NCBI GenBank assembly: GCA_016198545.1
Contig: JACQIJ010000087.1
Location: 1-34,656, forward strand
Direction: 5' to 3'
Source of the DNA: Pseudomonadota bacterium
GTDB lineage: Bacteria > Pseudomonadota > Alphaproteobacteria > Micavibrionales > Micavibrionaceae
DNA length: 34,656 bases
Part shown: positions 18,446 through 32,621 of the stretch, piece after piece
Layout of the letters: every line of letters starts with the position of its first letter
Numbering within the stretch: position 1 is the first letter of the stretch
Notes under the pieces: generated by a model
Databases searched by the model: none
What the model saw: only the letters and a program-made list of their open reading frames with translations
Told to the model about the DNA's origin: nothing
Program-made: the position numbers and the translations under genes

Positions 18446-18483
18446 GAATAAGGGGACATTCCATCAGGAATGCCCCCTTATTC
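18446..18483. terminator. bidirectional terminator between convergent genes
   Basis: GAATAAGGGGaCATTCC-ATCA-GGAATGcCCCCTTATTC: near-perfect inverted repeat between the plus-strand stop at 18439 and the minus-strand stop at 18482. Confidence 0.8.
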
Positions 18484-19735
18484 AGTCGGTTTTCCGGATA
18501 AAGCGCTCTCCCGTCTCCGCATGTGTGGCGGCTTTCCCCGTGTATTCTTCCCACCGCGCGACGATCACGTCGACGTATTTGGGGTCAAGCTCGACCATCC
18601 GGCACTGGCGGCCCAGCTTTTCGCAGGCGATCAATGTCGTGCCGGAACCGCCGAAGGGATCGAGCACGATGTCCTGCGTCTTGCTTGAGTTTTTGACGGC
18701 CCGCTCCACAAGCTCGACCGGCTTCATGGTCGGATGCAGTGTGTTTTTCTGAGGCTTGTTCACGAACCAGACATCGCCCTGATCGCGGGCGCCGCACCAG
18801 TAGCGGTCATTGCCTTCCTTCCAGCCGTACAGCAGCGGTTCGTATTGGCGCTGGTAGTCGGACCGGCCCAGCGTGAACGTATTCTTCGCCCAGATGATGA
18901 AGGTAGACCATTTTCCGCCTGCCGAGACGAAGGCGCTTTGCAGCGTATGCAGCTCCGAGGAACTCATGCATACGTAAAGCGATCCCTTGGTTACCATCAG
19001 CATGTTAGTGATGGAATCATACAGGAACTGCGCGAAGGCCTCGCCCAGATTGTCGTTCATGATCGTCCGGCCGCCGCTCTTGCCTTTGCGGGCGCGCTGC
19101 TTGTCCTTGGCTGTGTTGCCGTAATCGACGTTGTACGGCGGGTCGGTGAACACCATGTCCGCCAGCTGGCCGTCCATGACCTTTTCAATGTCCGTCAGGA
19201 CGGTGGCATCTCCGCACAGGACGCGGTGATTTCCTAAAATCCAGACGTCGCCTGTTTCACTGATCGGATCTTCCGGTGCCTCCGGCACGACATCGTCATC
19301 GCCGATATCGTCCTCGTCATCACCGAAGAGCAGATCGTCAATCTCCGTGGGATCAAACCCTAGGATGTCGATGTCGAAATCCTCCGCCTTGAGGGTTTCG
19401 AGTTCCAGTTTCAAAAGTTCGTCGTCCCATCCGGCGTTCAGGGCGATGCGGTTGTCGGCGATAATCAATGCTTTGCGCTGTGTTTCCGACAGATGAGCAA
19501 GCTCAATGACAGGAATTTGCGACATGCCCAGCAACCGGGCTGCGGCCAGACGGCCATGACCGGCAATAATGATGCCGCGCTCGTCGATCAGGACGGGATT
19601 GACGAATCCAAACTCGGCAATACTGGCGGCGATCTGTGCGATCTGCTCATCCGAATGCGTCCGCGCGTTGTTGGCGTATGGCACCAGAGCGTCCAGCGGA
19701 CGATATTCCACTTCCAAATTATTCATAGCGATCAA
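18482..19735 (-). CDS. ParB-like domain fused to DNA (adenine-N6/cytosine-N4) methyltransferase
   Basis: N-terminal ParB/Srx motif (YANNARTHSDEQIAQIAASIAEFGFVNPVLIDERGIIIAGHGRLAAARLLG) plus MTase motifs TDPPYNVDYG and DPFGGSGTTLIACEKLGR. Confidence 0.93.
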   Translation of the reverse strand: MIAMNNLEVEYRPLDALVPYANNARTHSDEQIAQIAASIAEFGFVNPVLIDERGIIIAGHGRLAAARLLGMSQIPVIELAHLSETQRKALIIADNRIALNAGWDDELLKLELETLKAEDFDIDILGFDPTEIDDLLFGDDEDDIGDDDVVPEAPEDPISETGDVWILGNHRVLCGDATVLTDIEKVMDGQLADMVFTDPPYNVDYGNTAKDKQRARKGKSGGRTIMNDNLGEAFAQFLYDSITNMLMVTKGSLYVCMSSSELHTLQSAFVSAGGKWSTFIIWAKNTFTLGRSDYQRQYEPLLYGWKEGNDRYWCGARDQGDVWFVNKPQKNTLHPTMKPVELVERAVKNSSKTQDIVLDPFGGSGTTLIACEKLGRQCRMVELDPKYVDVIVARWEEYTGKAATHAETGERFIRKTD

Positions 19736-20636
19736 CTTTCGATGTGAGACGCAAGAGTTCGGAACGCATACGCGGCAGCCAGCGGGACCACGCCGTTGCC
19801 ACAGAGCCGCAGACGGTCCACCCGGCAGGCCATCCCATCAGCCATTCGGTGAACAGCGGGTTTAAGCGCATCTGGGACGGATCCCCATGTGTCGAGGTTG
19901 CCTGGACCTGGCGGCCAGAGCGGAATACGAGATTCGCAAGTGATACTTGCCGCGTGATCCGGTCCTTCATGCCGGGGCTGTCTTTCCAGTCCCGCGCCAC
20001 CGGTGTTGGCCATGCTTTGGCTGTTTCCGCCAGTCCCTTGCCGTGCGTCGAGCTGGTTGAGCCAGGCTCCTGCGCCCTCGGCGTGGGCCAGTATGAACAG
20101 CCGCTCCCGCTTGTGCGGCGCGCCGATTTCTTCCGCCGTAAACAGACCCGTCTTAACGCCGTAACCCAGGCTTCGAAGGTCATCGTGGACTTGTTGGAAT
20201 CCCAATCGTAAATGGTGGGAGACGTTCTCGAAAAAAGCGATCCTTGGCCGCAGGTCGGCGACGATATCGCGTATGTACGGCCAGAGGTGCCGTGGGTCGC
20301 GTTCGGCCTGTTTTCGTCCGGCGATGGAGAATGGCTGGCACGGATATCCCGCAGTGACGATATCCACGCAGCCACGCCACTGGCTGCTGTCAAAGGTTCG
20401 AACGTCAGACCAGACAGGCGCCGTATCCAAGGTTTGATCTTCCATGCGCGCAGCAAGGATGCTGGCGGCATAGGCTTCCCCCTCGACATAACAAACGGTC
20501 CGACAGCCAGGGACGGCAAGCTTGAGTCCAAGCTCAATCCCTCCGGCCCCGGTACACAGGGACAGCACTGCGGGGGAATGACAATCCACACGAAAAAATC
20601 CAATAGGTTAAAGGATGGGTTTGCTAAATTCTTCAA
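19719..20636 (-). CDS. overlapping alternative-frame phage protein (WPTP / LNPxFxEWLMGWPxGWT family); true start uncertain
   Basis: The +1 frame relative to the C5-MTase retains SRTSPTIYDWDSNKSTMTFEAWVTALRRVCLRRKKSARRTSGSGCSYWPTPRAQEPGSTSS...AWPTPVARDWKDSPG...RLNPLFTEWLMGWPAGWT...RMRSELLRL, a recognisable phage protein pattern. Confidence 0.5.
   Translation of the reverse strand: MKNLANPSFNLLDFFVWIVIPPQCCPCVPGPEGLSLDSSLPSLAVGPFVMSRGKPMPPASLLRAWKIKPWIRRLSGLTFEPLTAASGVAAWISSLRDIRASHSPSPDENRPNATHGTSGRTYAISSPTCGQGSLFSRTSPTIYDWDSNKSTMTFEAWVTALRRVCLRRKKSARRTSGSGCSYWPTPRAQEPGSTSSTHGKGLAETAKAWPTPVARDWKDSPGMKDRITRQVSLANLVFRSGRQVQATSTHGDPSQMRLNPLFTEWLMGWPAGWTVCGSVATAWSRWLPRMRSELLRLTSKVDRYE
19732..20589 (-). 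CDS. DNA (cytosine-5-)-methyltransferase
   Basis: Motifs LCTGAGGIELGL, GYPCQPFSIAGRK, FFENV, GAPHKRERLF, RLCGNGVVP. Confidence 0.93.
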   Translation of the reverse strand: MDCHSPAVLSLCTGAGGIELGLKLAVPGCRTVCYVEGEAYAASILAARMEDQTLDTAPVWSDVRTFDSSQWRGCVDIVTAGYPCQPFSIAGRKQAERDPRHLWPYIRDIVADLRPRIAFFENVSHHLRLGFQQVHDDLRSLGYGVKTGLFTAEEIGAPHKRERLFILAHAEGAGAWLNQLDARQGTGGNSQSMANTGGAGLERQPRHEGPDHAASITCESRIPLWPPGPGNLDTWGSVPDALKPAVHRMADGMACRVDRLRLCGNGVVPLAAAYAFRTLASHIES

Positions 20637-27489: not shown

Positions 27490-27515
27490 AAAAAAAGCGC
27501 GGGAAACCGCGCTTT
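27490..27515 (-). terminator. rho-independent terminator of the QueC-like operon
   Basis: Minus strand AAAGCGCGG-TTTC-CCGCGCTTTTTTT, about 30 nt past the QueC-like stop. Confidence 0.85.
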
Positions 27516-27543
27516 GGGGGTGGGATTTGTGACAGGGAGGGAT

Positions 27544-29427
27544 TTAGCTTGTGACAGCCTCAGCTACGGCGGGTGCAAGATCAGCGGCGGACGCGAGTAA
27601 TTTTGCGGCTCCGTTGATTCTATACCCCTGTCCATGCACGTTTTCGATGAAATCAGGAATCACGGCCCCCATGTCCACACCGACGCGCTGAGAGACCTTT
27701 TCATTGATGCGCCCAATGGCCTGCCGCAAGCTCGGTTCTTTTTCTTTGAAAAATTCTTTTGCCAAAACCGCCGCGCTGATGGGCGCAGATTCTGCGCGCT
27801 TATTTTTCGCTTCGATGAAGGAAGGTAGAAGATATTTGACCAGATAATATTCGTTGGCCTGAAGAACCAGACCGCCAGAAAACAGAACCGTCTGCGCCTT
27901 ATCATCCACCGCAAACTCGCAGGGCTGGATAGAGAGCTTATCCATGAAAGCCTTCATCTCATTCGTTGTATCCTTGATGTGCGCCGTGATCGGTACAACT
28001 TTCGCGCCCGCCACGGACATGGATAGGAGACACCTTTCCGGTAAGGTGCCTTCTGATAAAGCATCCCCGTGTTCCTTGACGGCGGCGGCAATGACTCGCG
28101 TCACGTCTTTTGCGTGGCTTTGCATCATTTTGTGAATTTTATCAAGCGCGTCAGGGTCGTTGTAATGAGGCGCAGCATCGAAAACTGACGTGAAATCACG
28201 TTTCATTTGCTTAAGGCTAATGTCTGAAAACGCGTGAGCCAATCTGACGTAATTAACCGCCATGACAACATCAATACCCGTTCCCCTATCTCCGAGCATA
28301 AGATCACAAGCATATTTATCTTGCGGATCATGTGTGCCAAGACCTGCGGCCAGAATGCCGAAACGACGGTCGATACATTGCGAGCAGACCCCGCAGTGTG
28401 GTTTTCCGGCTGTGGGATTTCGTTGATTGGCGCAACTGTTTGTCTGACCGATAAGATCGGCATATCCATTTTTCTGGAGGAGTGCCGTTACTTCTCTTTT
28501 TGTCATCCATTGGTATGGATGCTCGATGGTGATAGTTTTGTTCAAAATGAGTGAGAAGATTTTTTCAAAACCACGGATGGTTTGCGGATGCGTAGTTTTT
28601 GTGGCACGAGCGCCAAGCACATCTTGCCCCAAGGGCAGATTCAGGCTGACAACGCCATTTTCGTAAAAAGTGATGGAATCCTTTTTGTAAAGCTGGGCGA
28701 TAGTCACGGCCAGAGAGGCGAAGATGAAGGAGCGTGTGCGCTGGGTGCGCTCTTTCTCTCTGTCCTCAAGGTTCTTGTTTCGAATTTTGACAGGAGTGTA
28801 GAAGATTTGCCTTGAAAGTCCGCGATTTCGAAGTTCTCCGACCAATTTTTTTTGAACGCTGACGACGTTATTGGATGAATGATGGCCGACAAGAAAGAGA
28901 TTCTTTTTGTTCGTTACCAGATCATCCACGGTGCCTGCGAAGGAATCTATGCCGCCAGAGAAAAGACAAATTTTGTCTGGCGTAAATCCAGCCGTGTTTT
29001 CACCATCCCAGAGACCAAGGTATTTTTGTGCCGTGTTGAGATCTTTCGCCACGCCCTTCTTGAATTCAAATTCGTAGGCATGATCGGATAAGAAGCCAAG
29101 GCACGACTTAAGAGCTTCCTTCACATCATCTCTGTTCCAAATATCGTATTCACGGACAGGGATCACAAACTTCAGGGGTTTCGTCCACGCCTGCCCGAAT
29201 TTTGCCAGTTCATTTGAGCCGCGCTTTGTACGCTGATCCGCGCAATAAATATATGCGGCGAATTCCAACAGATCGAGGAGAACGGGAGGGATGTTCGACA
29301 TGAGGGTATTTTCAATGTCGTCAATTACCAGCTCAACGGTCGGATCGTCGCCATGCACGTCCAGATAGACAGCATCTTCGCTATCTGTCGGAGTATATTT
29401 CACACCGCCGCAAATAATCTCAGGCAT
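27544..29427 (-). CDS. QueC-like enzyme (QatC/Cap9-type) with C-terminal OmpR-like winged helix
   Basis: PP-loop ICLFSGGIDSFAG; zinc motif SCANQRNPTAGKPHCGVCSQCIDRR; C-terminal LRQAIGRINEKVSQRVGVDMGAVIPDFIENVHGQGYRIN. ATG at 29427 with SD AGAGGG. Confidence 0.85.
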   Translation of the reverse strand: MPEIICGGVKYTPTDSEDAVYLDVHGDDPTVELVIDDIENTLMSNIPPVLLDLLEFAAYIYCADQRTKRGSNELAKFGQAWTKPLKFVIPVREYDIWNRDDVKEALKSCLGFLSDHAYEFEFKKGVAKDLNTAQKYLGLWDGENTAGFTPDKICLFSGGIDSFAGTVDDLVTNKKNLFLVGHHSSNNVVSVQKKLVGELRNRGLSRQIFYTPVKIRNKNLEDREKERTQRTRSFIFASLAVTIAQLYKKDSITFYENGVVSLNLPLGQDVLGARATKTTHPQTIRGFEKIFSLILNKTITIEHPYQWMTKREVTALLQKNGYADLIGQTNSCANQRNPTAGKPHCGVCSQCIDRRFGILAAGLGTHDPQDKYACDLMLGDRGTGIDVVMAVNYVRLAHAFSDISLKQMKRDFTSVFDAAPHYNDPDALDKIHKMMQSHAKDVTRVIAAAVKEHGDALSEGTLPERCLLSMSVAGAKVVPITAHIKDTTNEMKAFMDKLSIQPCEFAVDDKAQTVLFSGGLVLQANEYYLVKYLLPSFIEAKNKRAESAPISAAVLAKEFFKEKEPSLRQAIGRINEKVSQRVGVDMGAVIPDFIENVHGQGYRINGAAKLLASAADLAPAVAEAVTS

Positions 29428-30220
29428 CTTTCCCTCTTTGTCGTTGCTCTTTTGCAATTTTATTCATAGAAACATAAATGAACCCAGCTGATTTTTTCGC
29501 ATCCATTTTAGGTCTTGATCCATCTTTCGCCTGAGATGAATATTGCTTGCCAAGCCAATCCCGCGCGAATGGCCGCATAATCATGGACGATTCCATGCAA
29601 TGTTTTCTCAGGCCAGCTTGAAATACATTCATGTCTGCAATGGTTGGAAATCTTCCCGTGACCGAAACGTGCCTGGGCATTTCTCGGTCGAGATGGTAAT
29701 TCAATATTCTGTGGCTGAGATCAGCGTGAAAACGCTGACTTAATTCCCCAAAACGTGCCGTATCGGTAAAAGATGCGATCCCACTCTGCATATCATCCGT
29801 GTTCGACCCCCAGAGAGTTTGGGAGGCATTGTCCGACATTTCAAGGAAAGTAGAGATGGCTGATTGTTTAGCCATCGTCCCCAGATCCGTGCGCAGGCCG
29901 TTTTTGGCAGAAATGGCGTCAATGGTTTTCGCCATACCTTCTGCAATGTTATCGAGGGTTGGATTTTGCGGTACATCAATGCCGATCTTTTTTAGTGCCG
30001 CCTGAAAATCTTTCTCCTTTGCTGCCTGCGGGATATCGACCAGCATCTGATAAACAGCAACGAGTGTTTTGTCATTGGCAGCTTTTTCTAGGCCAGCAAT
30101 GGCAGCATTTGCTACGGCCTCCGCCAAGGCTTGCGCAGAAGTGCCATCGTCGCCCAGTAGGGCGATGATCTCCTTCCATTTCTGCGATGTGGGCAACTTG
30201 CCCAGCCTGACGTGACCCAT
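29420..30220 (-). CDS. QueC-associated partner protein, Met-Gly N-terminus (QatB-like role by position)
   Basis: 266 aa from internal ATG 30220: MGHVRLGKLPTSQKWKEIIALLGDDG...; GGGGGA upstream of this ATG; 8-nt overlap with the QueC-like start (ATGCCTGA). Confidence 0.75.
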   Translation of the reverse strand: MGHVRLGKLPTSQKWKEIIALLGDDGTSAQALAEAVANAAIAGLEKAANDKTLVAVYQMLVDIPQAAKEKDFQAALKKIGIDVPQNPTLDNIAEGMAKTIDAISAKNGLRTDLGTMAKQSAISTFLEMSDNASQTLWGSNTDDMQSGIASFTDTARFGELSQRFHADLSHRILNYHLDREMPRHVSVTGRFPTIADMNVFQAGLRKHCMESSMIMRPFARDWLGKQYSSQAKDGSRPKMDAKKSAGFIYVSMNKIAKEQRQRGKDA

Positions 30221-30371
30221 GATCCCCCGTTCAGGTGTCGAAATATCGAACACCATGAATTTAGACTCATTATGTTTATAGTGTGGGGATTATTTTATAA
30301 GAACATTACGAGAACGCAAGCGAAAAGCAACGTACAGGCGTGGAGAAGAGAAAATACGGCCTAATAACACA

Positions 30372-30459
30372 CCGAGGTATGACAACGGCTTATATAAGCA
30401 TTTCCTATCTTTTCGGCAGTGATCCTGCTATCATTGGAAATAGGAATCGTATGCCTCGG
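30372..30459 (+). ncRNA. possible structured RNA / nested hairpin in intergenic region
   Basis: Outer stem CCGAGG(TATG)/(GTATG)CCTCGG (372-381 / 449-459), middle stem TTCCTAT/ATAGGAA (402-408 / 440-446), apical GCAG/CTGC (416-419 / 425-428). Confidence 0.3.
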
Positions 30460-30595
30460 CTCGGAACGACCGAAAAGACGATAAGACTTCAGACTACTGC
30501 CTACAGCAACCTTCGTGAAACCGCTGGCACAGGTAGTTTTTAAACGTTCCCGAACTGCCGGACTTAAGCCCAGCCTTTAACGAAAGGATTGCATC

Positions 30596-31288
30596 ATGCA
30601 AGCCGATATCTCGAAAATGTGCGCGGATTTTCTCCGTGCCTACGTTCTATCCGAAACGAATGAAAACCTGAAGGCGACCCATGCGCGGGAGCTGACGGCG
30701 GCGTTCTTCGGATATAAAAGTCACGCGGCGTTGTTGGCGGAGAAGAAACATCCTCTCCATCAACTGGAGAAAGCGGCCATTCTTGTGCCAGACATCGCGT
30801 TGATGGATGCGCGGCGCGGGAAACTGGAGGGGCTTCCTCCGCACCTGCCGGATTCTAAAATGATCGCTCGGAAAATTGTAGATTTTTTGGATCGCGAGTC
30901 TCTTTTCACAGGTACGGTCTGGTGGGTCTATGACACGCTGGAAAATTACATCATCGAGGAATTTCTACCCGAATACGACTACGCTGTCATGGACGATTTG
31001 TCGGGGCAGATGGCCGAGACAAATGCGCTGTTCGACGAGACTTATTATGAGGAGGCTATAGTCGATGAAGATGATGATGGCATCCTTGTTTCTGTCACAG
31101 GGCAATGCAACGGTACGAGCGACCAAGACAAGCCGTTCAGCGGTGACCAGATCGACCTGACTGTCACTGTTGAAATGTCGCGTGCCGCTGGGCGGAATGC
31201 GTATTTCAAGCCCCACATAAAAGCCGACGGCGCAGTCAACTGGGATTGGGCGGATGTGGATGAACCCCAGCTTGAACGGGGGGCGTGA
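30596..31288 (+). CDS. uncharacterised accessory protein
   Basis: 230 aa, SD AACGAAAGGATTGC; N-terminal THARELTAAFFGYKSHAALLAEK segment; acidic C-terminal half. Confidence 0.75.
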   Translation: MQADISKMCADFLRAYVLSETNENLKATHARELTAAFFGYKSHAALLAEKKHPLHQLEKAAILVPDIALMDARRGKLEGLPPHLPDSKMIARKIVDFLDRESLFTGTVWWVYDTLENYIIEEFLPEYDYAVMDDLSGQMAETNALFDETYYEEAIVDEDDDGILVSVTGQCNGTSDQDKPFSGDQIDLTVTVEMSRAAGRNAYFKPHIKADGAVNWDWADVDEPQLERGA

Positions 31289-31306
31289 TGTTTGCTTATA
31301 TAGACG

Positions 31307-32356
31307 CTAAGGCAGTGAATACCACGCCCCACGGCCAGAGCCGTGCATCACCAGATGCCCTTTTTCGAGCAGCTGGCGGAAGTGTTCCTTCAGGGTGTTA
31401 CGGCTAACGCCGGTAAGCTTGACCATCTCGCCAATCGTCACGCGGCCATGCTCCCGCGCCTGTTCCAGGATACTCACCGACAGCTCCGGTAGCGCCGACA
31501 GGACGAGTTTTTCTCTCTCCATCTTTTTGGCGAGGCGCCGCATCTGGCTTTGAAGGGCGCGCAGGAAGAACAAGATCCACGGCTGCCAGTTGGGAGCCTC
31601 AGTCCTGATCGATCCTTGCGTCTGGCGCAGGGCAAGGTAATAGTTTTCCTTGTTCTGCTCGACCACGCTTTCGAGCGAACTGTAAGGAACATAGGCGTAT
31701 CCGGCACGCAGCAATAGCAGCGTTGTCAGGATGCGGCTCAAGCGGCCATTGCCGTCCTGGAAGGGATGGATCTCAAGAAAAATTACGATGAAGATGGCGA
31801 CGACGAGCAAGGGATGCAGCGCCTTTGTCTCCAGCGTCGCGTTCGCCCATGCGACTAGCTCCGTCATCAGGCGCGGTGTATCGAAGGGCGTGGCCGTCTC
31901 AAAGACGATCCCGATCTGGTTGCCGTCCTCGTCAAAGGCCGCGACGCTGTTGGATGAGGTTTTATAATCCCCTCGGTGGCGTGAATCCTTTTCGCTGTAT
32001 TTTAAAAGATCACGATGCAGCTGCTTGATATGATTTTCCGTCAGCGTGATATCTGCCCATGACTGGAAGATCAGCTCCATCGCCTCAGCGTAACCGGCGA
32101 CTTCCTGTTCATCCCGCGTTTCAAAGGATTTGATCTGGAGGTTGGACAGCAGGCGCTCGACATCGCGGTCCGACAGCTTGCTGCCCTCAATGCGGGTTGA
32201 CGAGCCGATGCTTTCAATGGTGGCCACGCGGCGCAGGGCCGACAGACGCTCCGGTGCCAAAGTCCCCAGTGCGCGCCACGCCCCTTTGAACTCGTCGATC
32301 TCAGAGACAAGGGCGAGGACGTCCTGGGTGATTTTTACGGTATCGGTCTTTATCAT
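31307..32356 (-). CDS. Fic/DOC family protein with N-terminal inhibitory motif and C-terminal winged helix
   Basis: Catalytic HPFQDGNGRLSR; inhibitory-type SSTRIEGSKL; C-terminal HTH (GRVTIGEMVKLTGVSRNTLKEHFRQLLEKGHLVMHGSGRGAWY). Start could also be ATG 32410. Confidence 0.93.
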   Translation of the reverse strand: MIKTDTVKITQDVLALVSEIDEFKGAWRALGTLAPERLSALRRVATIESIGSSTRIEGSKLSDRDVERLLSNLQIKSFETRDEQEVAGYAEAMELIFQSWADITLTENHIKQLHRDLLKYSEKDSRHRGDYKTSSNSVAAFDEDGNQIGIVFETATPFDTPRLMTELVAWANATLETKALHPLLVVAIFIVIFLEIHPFQDGNGRLSRILTTLLLLRAGYAYVPYSSLESVVEQNKENYYLALRQTQGSIRTEAPNWQPWILFFLRALQSQMRRLAKKMEREKLVLSALPELSVSILEQAREHGRVTIGEMVKLTGVSRNTLKEHFRQLLEKGHLVMHGSGRGAWYSLP

Positions 32357-32422
32357 ACACCCGATAATACACCCATTTGCACCCAATAGGCCAGCCAAAA
32401 AACCACCCATTTACACCCAATA
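32357..32422 (-). promoter_or_regulatory. phased CACCC-box repeat at the fic start, putative operator
   Basis: CACCC(A/G)A/TT units begin at 32358, 32370, 32380, 32404, 32414; two 19-nt copies CACCCATTT(G/A)CACCCAATA at 32370-32388 and 32404-32422. Confidence 0.6.

Positions 32423-32544: not shown

Positions 32545-32621
<77 letters not shown>

What the first reader, a model, noticed from the sequence alone, without database searches (positions are those of the whole stretch)
27490..30256. Two-gene QueC-like operon: a reduced Qat / type IV CBASS-like deazaguanine module in the prophage accessory region
Sequence: a QueC-fold enzyme (SGGIDS PP-loop; C-x12-C-x2-C-x2-C zinc motif) is coupled by an 8-nt start/stop overlap to an upstream 266-aa partner. 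The pair ends in its own strong terminator and sits between phage early genes and the tRNA end of the prophage. No queuosine biosynthesis neighbours (QueD/E/F, TGT) are visible. Established: QueC paralogues occur in the anti-phage systems Qat (QatABCD) and type IV CBASS (Cap9). Inference: this lacks a recognisable QatA ATPase, QatD TatD-like nuclease and CD-NTase, so it would be a distinct minimal system.
Basis: partly seen in the sequence, partly recalled or inferred. Interest (0 to 1): 0.88.

Follow-up and report, generated by a model that had tools for sequence, protein, structure and literature searches.

The report
Two-gene Qat-like prophage defence pair
A prophage carries a widespread but, as far as I could find, undescribed two-gene relative of the core of the Qat anti-phage system, in which a QueC-type enzyme fused to a DNA-binding domain probably modifies the conserved front end of its partner protein to block other phages; why such enzymes act on proteins, and with what chemical group, is an open question that this natural minimal version makes easier to test.

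Summary
Window 27544-30220 (-) encodes a QatC-type enzyme and a 266-aa partner that overlap by 8 nt, followed by a strong terminator. About 145 loci were found from the partner (mostly Alphaproteobacteria, also Planctomycetota, Verrucomicrobiota, a Leptospira plasmid). In the reciprocal scan 67 of 72 loci carry the partner; the other five are cut by the contig end. (2) None of 197 loci has QatA or QatD, and in trees the enzymes lie on one side of a branch apart from qatABCD QatC (99/98; core only 100/96). (3) The enzyme has QatC's threonine pocket, not the Tyr/Asp pocket of QueC and Cap9. (4) The partner's disordered tail is its most conserved stretch (MGHxRLG; Gly2 invariant), like QatB's essential MGTS; profiles suggest remote QatB homology. 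(5) The enzyme ends in a PhoB-type winged helix, replaced by a DpnII/MboI-type nuclease domain in a Leptospira plasmid homologue. (6) Partner body and enzyme core were exchanged as one block between sister prophages. A deazaguanine modification is not supported: 14 of 28 carriers tested lack both QueC and any QueD-family gene. Anti-phage function is inferred, not shown. Verdict: new variant of a known kind.

The parts
29420..30220 (-). Partner protein, 266 aa: QatB-like, all-helical, N-terminal MGHVRLG tail (putative acceptor of the modification)
   Evidence: found in about 145 loci; Gly2 invariant; AF2 pLDDT 91, ten helices; hhalign to QatB P = 71%, E = 4e-5 for one pair
30200..30220 (-). MGHVRLG tail, the most conserved 9-residue stretch of the partner yet predicted as coil
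   Evidence: 3.80 bits against 2.20 for the rest; M1 G2 H3 G7 invariant in 50; coil to residue 14
27544..29427 (-). QatC-like enzyme, 627 aa from ATG 29427 (637 aa from TTG 29457)
   Evidence: PADLOC QatC 7e-55, NCBIfam QatC 212 bits (cut-off 280), PDB QatC 5e-57 by profile
28942..28959 (-). SGGIDS PP-loop (residues 157-162), ATP pyrophosphate binding
   Evidence: S157 G158 G159 D161 S162 invariant in 44 homologues
28585..28602 (-). TKTTHP (residues 276-281): QatC-type substrate pocket; T276 and T278 match P. aeruginosa QatC T278 and T280
   Evidence: Alignment to PDB 9zee; near-invariant; essential threonines described in PMC13279940
28375..28434 (-). Zinc motif C332-x12-C345-x2-C348-x2-C351 followed by DRR
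27544..27963 (-). C-terminal OmpR/PhoB-type winged helix (residues 489-627), replaceable module
   Evidence: Trans_reg_C weak; TcpP E = 0.003; pLDDT 89; SaeR, CadC, PhoP DNA-binding domains, Foldseek prob 0.80-0.99; Trans_reg_C 7e-11 in a sister; DpnII-MboI REase 1e-10 in the Leptospira homologue
29420..29427 (-). 8-nt stop/start overlap (translational coupling)
   Evidence: overlaps of 4-41 nt in almost all loci
27494..27515 (-). Intrinsic terminator after the pair
30301..30315 (.). GTTC-N7-GTTC, LexA-type (SOS) box of Alphaproteobacteria, 81-95 nt before the partner's ATG; a lead, not shown
   Evidence: also in the sister phage; 5 of 57 upstream regions against 0.34 expected

Best explanation
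The pair is a stand-alone, prophage-carried anti-phage (superinfection-exclusion) module built like the QatB-QatC core of Qat. Steps: (1) partner and QatC-like enzyme are made together in a translationally coupled two-gene operon (sequence evidence); (2) after removal of the start methionine, Gly2 of the partner's MGHxRLG tail is placed in the enzyme's ATP-dependent PP-loop site and modified at its N-terminus (inferred, by analogy with QatB/QatC and CdnD/Cap9); (3) the modified complex is the active form and is aimed at DNA by the enzyme's C-terminal winged helix, or cuts DNA where that position holds a nuclease (inferred from domain architecture); (4) this stops an incoming phage, protecting the lysogen (inferred). 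The chemical group is unknown and is probably not the CDG used in type IV CBASS.
For: QatC family by profile and active site: 7e-55; QatC 5e-57 against Cap9 0.012; SGGxDS, RxRSF, ENG, T-x-T-T-H-P, Zn Cys conserved. Reciprocal co-conservation: and 57/62 (67 of 72; the other 5 end at the contig edge). No QatA/QatD in 197 loci. Distinct branch. Tail: invariant Gly2, most conserved stretch, predicted coil. QatB resemblance: hhalign P = 67-71%, E = 4-5e-5 over 140 columns against 0.1-0.3% for shuffled or reversed controls. Published: QatBC alone defends, QatB Gly2 and the QatC threonines are essential (PMC13279940). C-terminal DNA module. Mobile setting: 24 of 142 flanking proteins are serine or tyrosine recombinases. 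In related prophages the slot holds other genes. Partner body plus enzyme core were exchanged as one block (dS about 1.6-2 against 0.24-0.73 in flanks and 0.42 in the wHTH), with dN/dS near 0.09.
Against: No phage-challenge data for any member. The partner hits no QatB model and its model has no PDB fold match at E <= 0.001 (whether the QatB entries are in that library is not known), so QatB homology is only suggestive. The enzyme scores below NCBIfam's QatC cut-off (212 of 280 bits). Neighbours within two genes are mainly phage and integration genes, with only single defence-gene hits. A winged helix could also mean plain regulation.
Confidence: 0.62

Rival explanations
1. A prophage regulatory switch: the QatC-winged-helix protein is a transcription factor whose activity is set by partner modification, controlling lysogeny or the pair's own promoter, with no direct anti-phage action.
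For: Winged helix of PhoB type; LexA-type box upstream shared with the sister phage; in the allele exchange the promoter region and the winged helix stay with the phage while the rest is replaced, as expected if that helix binds that promoter; the pair lies next to excisionase-like HTH and recombinase genes.
Against: The C-terminal module is replaced by other domains, once by a REase; related phages with the same early genes lack the pair, so it is not essential to the phage cycle; the closest studied relative is a defence complex.
Confidence: 0.2
2. A toxin-antitoxin-like or abortive pair in which enzyme action on the partner switches on toxicity, kept for prophage stability rather than aimed at phages.
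For: Two overlapping genes on mobile elements, repeatedly broken enzyme genes with intact partners (L109, L119, L137), exchangeable DNA-acting C-terminus.
Against: Both proteins are large and under strong purifying selection; QatBC defends without being described as a TA pair (PMC13279940).
Confidence: 0.1
3. A preQ0/deazaguanine enzyme: phage-borne QueC for queuosine or DNA base modification.
For: PF06508 match over the cut-off (33.6 bits); PHROG name 'QueC-like queuosine biosynthesis'.
Against: QatC scores far above QueC (212 against 24 bits); QueC motifs YxQxHxxE, VPxRN and YPDC are absent and replaced by QatC motifs; obligate linkage to a partner without any recognised enzyme domain; QatC does not complement queC (PMC13329287).
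Confidence: 0.02

Closest known systems
qatABCD (Qat) anti-phage system, QatB-QatC core
   Same: QatC-type enzyme with PP-loop, Thr/Thr pocket, zinc motif and C-terminal extension up to about residue 456; upstream all-helical partner with a disordered N-terminus beginning Met-Gly; two overlapping genes.
   Different: No qatA or qatD in any locus; MGHxRLG instead of MGTS; tail of about 14 residues instead of 30-90; added C-terminal winged helix or nuclease; separate branch in trees; below the NCBIfam QatC cut-off and no QatB model hit.
Type IV CBASS Cap9-CdnD
   Same: QueC-fold enzyme beside a partner with Gly after the start Met, proposed N-terminal conjugation.
   Different: No CD-NTase, no Cap10 seen; Cap9's CDG-binding Tyr/Asp replaced by Thr/Thr; enzyme about three times larger.
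[quoted passage not shown]
   Same: PP-loop Rossmann core and Zn site.
   Different: All QueC-specific substrate motifs missing; no Q-pathway neighbours; long N- and C-terminal additions.
Third QatC-like arrangement seen here (L147, L148, L242-L244)
   Same: About 190-aa partner directly upstream of a QatC-like gene.
   Different: Partner starts M(S/T)DGP, enzyme has SDGMDS; in the two loci annotated, an ImmA/IrrE-type HTH peptidase follows; own branch (100/100).

Membership tests
qatABCD (Qat) | QatC protein by curated model | tested here: inconclusive
   PADLOC QatC E = 7e-55, but NCBIfam NF041925 212 bits is under its 280-bit cut-off
qatABCD (Qat) | QatC substrate pocket Thr278/Thr280 and SGGxDS | tested here: met
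   T276, T278 and SGGIDS, (near-)invariant
qatABCD (Qat) | QatB protein | tested here: inconclusive
   No PADLOC model hit; hhalign P = 67-71%, E about 4e-5; AF2 all-helical, ten helices
qatABCD (Qat) | QatB N-terminal MGTS motif | tested here: not met
   MGHxRLG instead; Met-Gly is kept
qatABCD (Qat) | QatA KAP NTPase in the operon | tested here: not met
   0 of 197 loci; present in 4 of 4 classical loci
qatABCD (Qat) | QatD TatD-like nuclease in the operon | tested here: not met
   0 of 197 loci; present in 4 of 4 classical loci
qatABCD (Qat) | Protection against phages | not testable with these tools
   Needs a plaque assay
Type IV CBASS | CD-NTase next to Cap9 | tested here: not met
   Partner hits no CD-NTase model in Pfam, PADLOC or NCBIfam; its model is all-helical
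Type IV CBASS | Cap9-like Tyr-x-Asp CDG pocket | tested here: not met
   Thr/Thr in its place; Cap9 E = 0.012 against QatC 5e-57
Housekeeping QueC | QueC equivalog score and YxQxHxxE, VPxRN, YPDC motifs | tested here: not met
   TIGR00364 23.9 bits against cut-off 150.3; motifs absent in the translation
OmpR/PhoB-type winged helix (C-terminal domain) | Sheet, three helices, C-terminal hairpin with GYRL | tested here: met
   AF2 pLDDT 89; Foldseek SaeR/CadC prob 0.97-0.99, E 0.05-0.06; Trans_reg_C 7e-11 in sister L051; GYR(L/I) in 91 of 104 complete enzymes

The most novel reading that the evidence does not exclude
A separate family of two-gene immune switches in which a QatC-type ligase attaches an as yet unknown, non-deazaguanine group to the N-terminal glycine of its partner and thereby arms a DNA-targeting module fused to the enzyme itself (winged helix, or a restriction-type nuclease).
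Probability: 0.3. Interest if true: 0.88.

Novelty: new variant of a known kind. Interest (0 to 1): 0.72.

Why it matters
In April 2026 QatB+QatC alone were shown to defend, but the reaction, the modifying group and the way phage is stopped were left open (PMC13279940). This family is a natural QatBC-only system, found in prophages and genomes of several phyla, with a DNA-acting part fused onto the enzyme. It gives a clue to the missing effector step (DNA, by winged helix or nuclease) and to the chemistry: carriers without QueC and QueD suggest that the group is not CDG. It also shows that the QatC family holds at least three separate gene arrangements, while a family-wide survey (PMC13329287) treats it as one cluster and reports qatA in only 34% of neighbourhoods.

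Tried and rejected
Single-protein scan of genome contigs with the enzyme found nothing; the partner alignment was needed. Partner against the phage collection: no match; plasmids: one Leptospira record. Partner profile against PDB sequences and partner fold against PDB structures: nothing significant. Palindromic operator upstream of the pair: no clear enrichment over shuffles (14% of loci), rejected. Rfam on the neighbourhood: only the tRNA. Link to host Q synthesis: carriers 14 of 28 with QueC against 48 of 116 Alphaproteobacteria, so no dependence is seen. Housekeeping QueC and Cap9 membership rejected on motifs and scores. From the partner side a few loci (L086, L127, truncated L060) show no enzyme gene downstream although about 2 kb or more follows; I read these as decayed or orphan copies. 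Autoregulation by the winged helix was considered and left as a rival only.

Full report
WHAT IS THERE. A strong intrinsic terminator follows (27494-27515; 76-nt stretch z = -6.2). The window is a whole 34,656-base contig of a 1.97-Mb, 90%-complete assembly with phage terminase, portal and tail-type ORFs, a tRNA-Met at 32545-32621 and asd beyond it.

THE ENZYME IS QatC-TYPE. It matches PADLOC QatC (7e-55; QueC 9e-6), NCBIfam QatC (212 bits, under the 280-bit equivalog cut-off; QueC TIGR00364 only 24 of 150 bits) and crystallised QatC (8e-31, profile 5e-57; Cap9 0.012). Across 44 homologues SGGxDS, RxRxF, ENG, THP and three zinc cysteines with the DRR that follows are invariant, and T276, R277, T278 and the fourth zinc cysteine near-invariant. 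Aligned to P. aeruginosa QatC (9zee), T276 and T278 correspond to T278 and T280, the two threonines that replace the CDG-binding Tyr/Asp of QueC and Cap9 and are essential for defence (PMC13279940).

THE PAIR IS A CONSERVED UNIT. Starting from four partners in different alphaproteobacterial families, a partner-alignment scan found 47 loci in IMG/VR and 98 in GTDB contigs (80 kept); nearly all have a QatC-like ORF directly downstream, overlapping by 4-41 nt. The scan patterns used the MGH motif, so I reversed the test: a scan with the enzyme alignment (patterns from PP-loop and zinc site) gave 72 new loci, of which 67 have the partner just upstream and the other five begin at the contig edge. 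Some of the 72 are other stretches of contigs already seen. Hosts are mainly Rhodobacterales, Acetobacterales, Sphingomonadales and Rhizobiales, with a few Planctomycetota, Verrucomicrobiota and a Leptospira plasmid. Frequency is near 1% of Alphaproteobacteria sampled.

IT STANDS ALONE. tblastn with QatA and QatD from three classical operons finds them in all four classical loci and in none of 197 two-gene loci (2.2 Mb). In maximum-likelihood trees the two-gene enzymes lie on one side of a branch (99/98 whole protein; 100/96 catalytic core only), as do QatC of qatABCD and a third set. These trees are unrooted, so 'clade' holds only if the root lies outside.

THE PARTNER LOOKS LIKE QatB AND CARRIES A SUBSTRATE-LIKE TAIL. 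AlphaFold2 gives a confident (pLDDT 91) all-helical protein of ten helices with residues 1-14 as coil; QatB is also ten helices with a disordered N-terminus (PMC13279940). Fold search found no PDB match at E <= 0.001. Profile comparison with 14 QatB sequences gives P = 67-71%, E = 4-5e-5 over 140 collinear columns; shuffled or reversed controls give 0.1-0.3%. I call this suggestive. The coil is the most conserved stretch: 3.80 bits for residues 1-9 against 2.20 for the rest; Met1 and Gly2 are invariant and His3 nearly so (the extraction pattern required MG, so the unbiased evidence is, where the complete partners begin Met-Gly). QatB G2D and tail deletions abolish defence (PMC13279940), so the simplest reading is that Gly2 is the acceptor in the enzyme's site. 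That modification is inferred, not shown.

A DNA MODULE IS FUSED TO THE ENZYME. Residues 489-627 are predicted as an OmpR/PhoB-type winged helix (pLDDT 89; Foldseek SaeR and CadC prob 0.97-0.99, E 0.05-0.06; TcpP by profile 0.003). In sisters L016 and L051 Pfam calls it outright (Trans_reg_C, 2e-9 and 7e-11). In 33 enzymes, many of them planctomycetal, verrucomicrobial or metagenomic, another C-terminus is used, and in the Leptospira plasmid homologue a DpnII-MboI REase domain (1e-10, over cut-off), while partner and core are clearly homologous (1e-42 and 5e-112). An exchangeable C-terminus that is DNA-binding or DNA-cutting points to DNA as the target.

MOBILE, ACCESSORY, AND SWAPPED AS A BLOCK. 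Among 142 flanking proteins, 14 are large serine recombinases, 10 tyrosine integrases, 7 DUF2924 and 7 phage AAA_24 ATPases; defence genes occur singly. Phages that share the early module (PDDEXK, primase/helicase) carry other genes in this slot, except the sister L250. Between window and L250, identity is about 0.9 in the phage early genes, the winged helix (from 27960 down) and the promoter region (30206-30340), but about 0.7 from about 27990 to about 30185. dS is 1.6-1.9 in partner and enzyme overall against 0.24-0.73 in flanks and 0.42 in the last 101 codons; dN/dS near 0.09. So partner body and enzyme core were exchanged together, with a breakpoint at the domain boundary, and the promoter with the winged helix stayed. 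This supports partner and core as one functional unit, and is also what a promoter-binding winged helix would show.

THE CHEMISTRY. The own genome has neither QueC nor a QueD-family gene (90% complete). Of 28 carriers tested for QueC, 14 lack it, and all of these also lack any PTPS/QueD protein, including three assemblies at 99-100% completeness (G196, G343, G686). QueC is present in 48 of 116 Alphaproteobacteria at large and in 9 of 11 classical Qat carriers. QueE was not searched. A substrate made by the CDG pathway is thus unlikely to be required, in line with the Thr/Thr pocket; salvage of related bases is not excluded.

REGULATION LEAD. A GTTC-N7-GTTC site (the alphaproteobacterial LexA consensus; established knowledge, GTTC/GAAC groups in PMC6473078) lies 81-95 nt before the partner and is kept in the sister phage; 5 of 57 upstream regions have one, 0.34 expected.

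VERDICT. Real, conserved, and distinct from qatABCD by tested features (no QatA/QatD, no MGTS). It should not be filed as Qat, but most likely works like its QatBC core. I found no description of it in the open-access library; most subscription papers and preprints are not in that library. Defence is inferred.

Noticed in passing
L154:4566-8323, L155:3765-6870, L242, L243, L244: A third QatC-like arrangement: about 190-aa partner starting M(S/T)DGP, a QatC-like enzyme with SDGMDS instead of SGGxDS, and (in the two loci annotated) an HTH-ImmA/IrrE (Peptidase_M78) protein; own branch (100/100). Function unknown.
   Followed up: partly
L279:4001-6645 (NZ_CP091938.1, Leptospira noguchii plasmid p1): Homologous pair (MGHERLG partner) whose enzyme ends in a DpnII-MboI REase domain instead of the winged helix; an IS982 transposase gene lies just upstream.
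   Followed up: partly
window 30402-31306: About 905 bp with a lone 230-aa ORF (+) without family match, absent from the otherwise 84%-identical sister phage L250; an insertion or deletion between the pair and the Fic gene.
   Followed up: partly
window 31307-32410: Fic/DOC protein with C-terminal HTH between the pair and the tRNA-Met, 92% identical in the sister phage; a possible further cargo gene.
   Followed up: no
window 30301-30315: LexA-type GTTC-N7-GTTC box upstream of the pair, also in a few distant loci (L019, L076, L105).
   Followed up: partly
G000 (whole assembly): No QueC and no QueD-family gene found in the 90%-complete host assembly; the sampled same-family genome G137 also lacks QueC.
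   Followed up: partly
L069, L072, L109, L111, L119, L137: Enzyme genes broken by frameshift or stop with the partner intact, suggesting repeated loss of the enzyme.
   Followed up: no
window 18482-20589: Adjacent ParB-like/adenine and C5-cytosine-type DNA methylase ORFs overlapping by 4 nt, probably phage self-protection; named from sequence appearance only.
   Followed up: no
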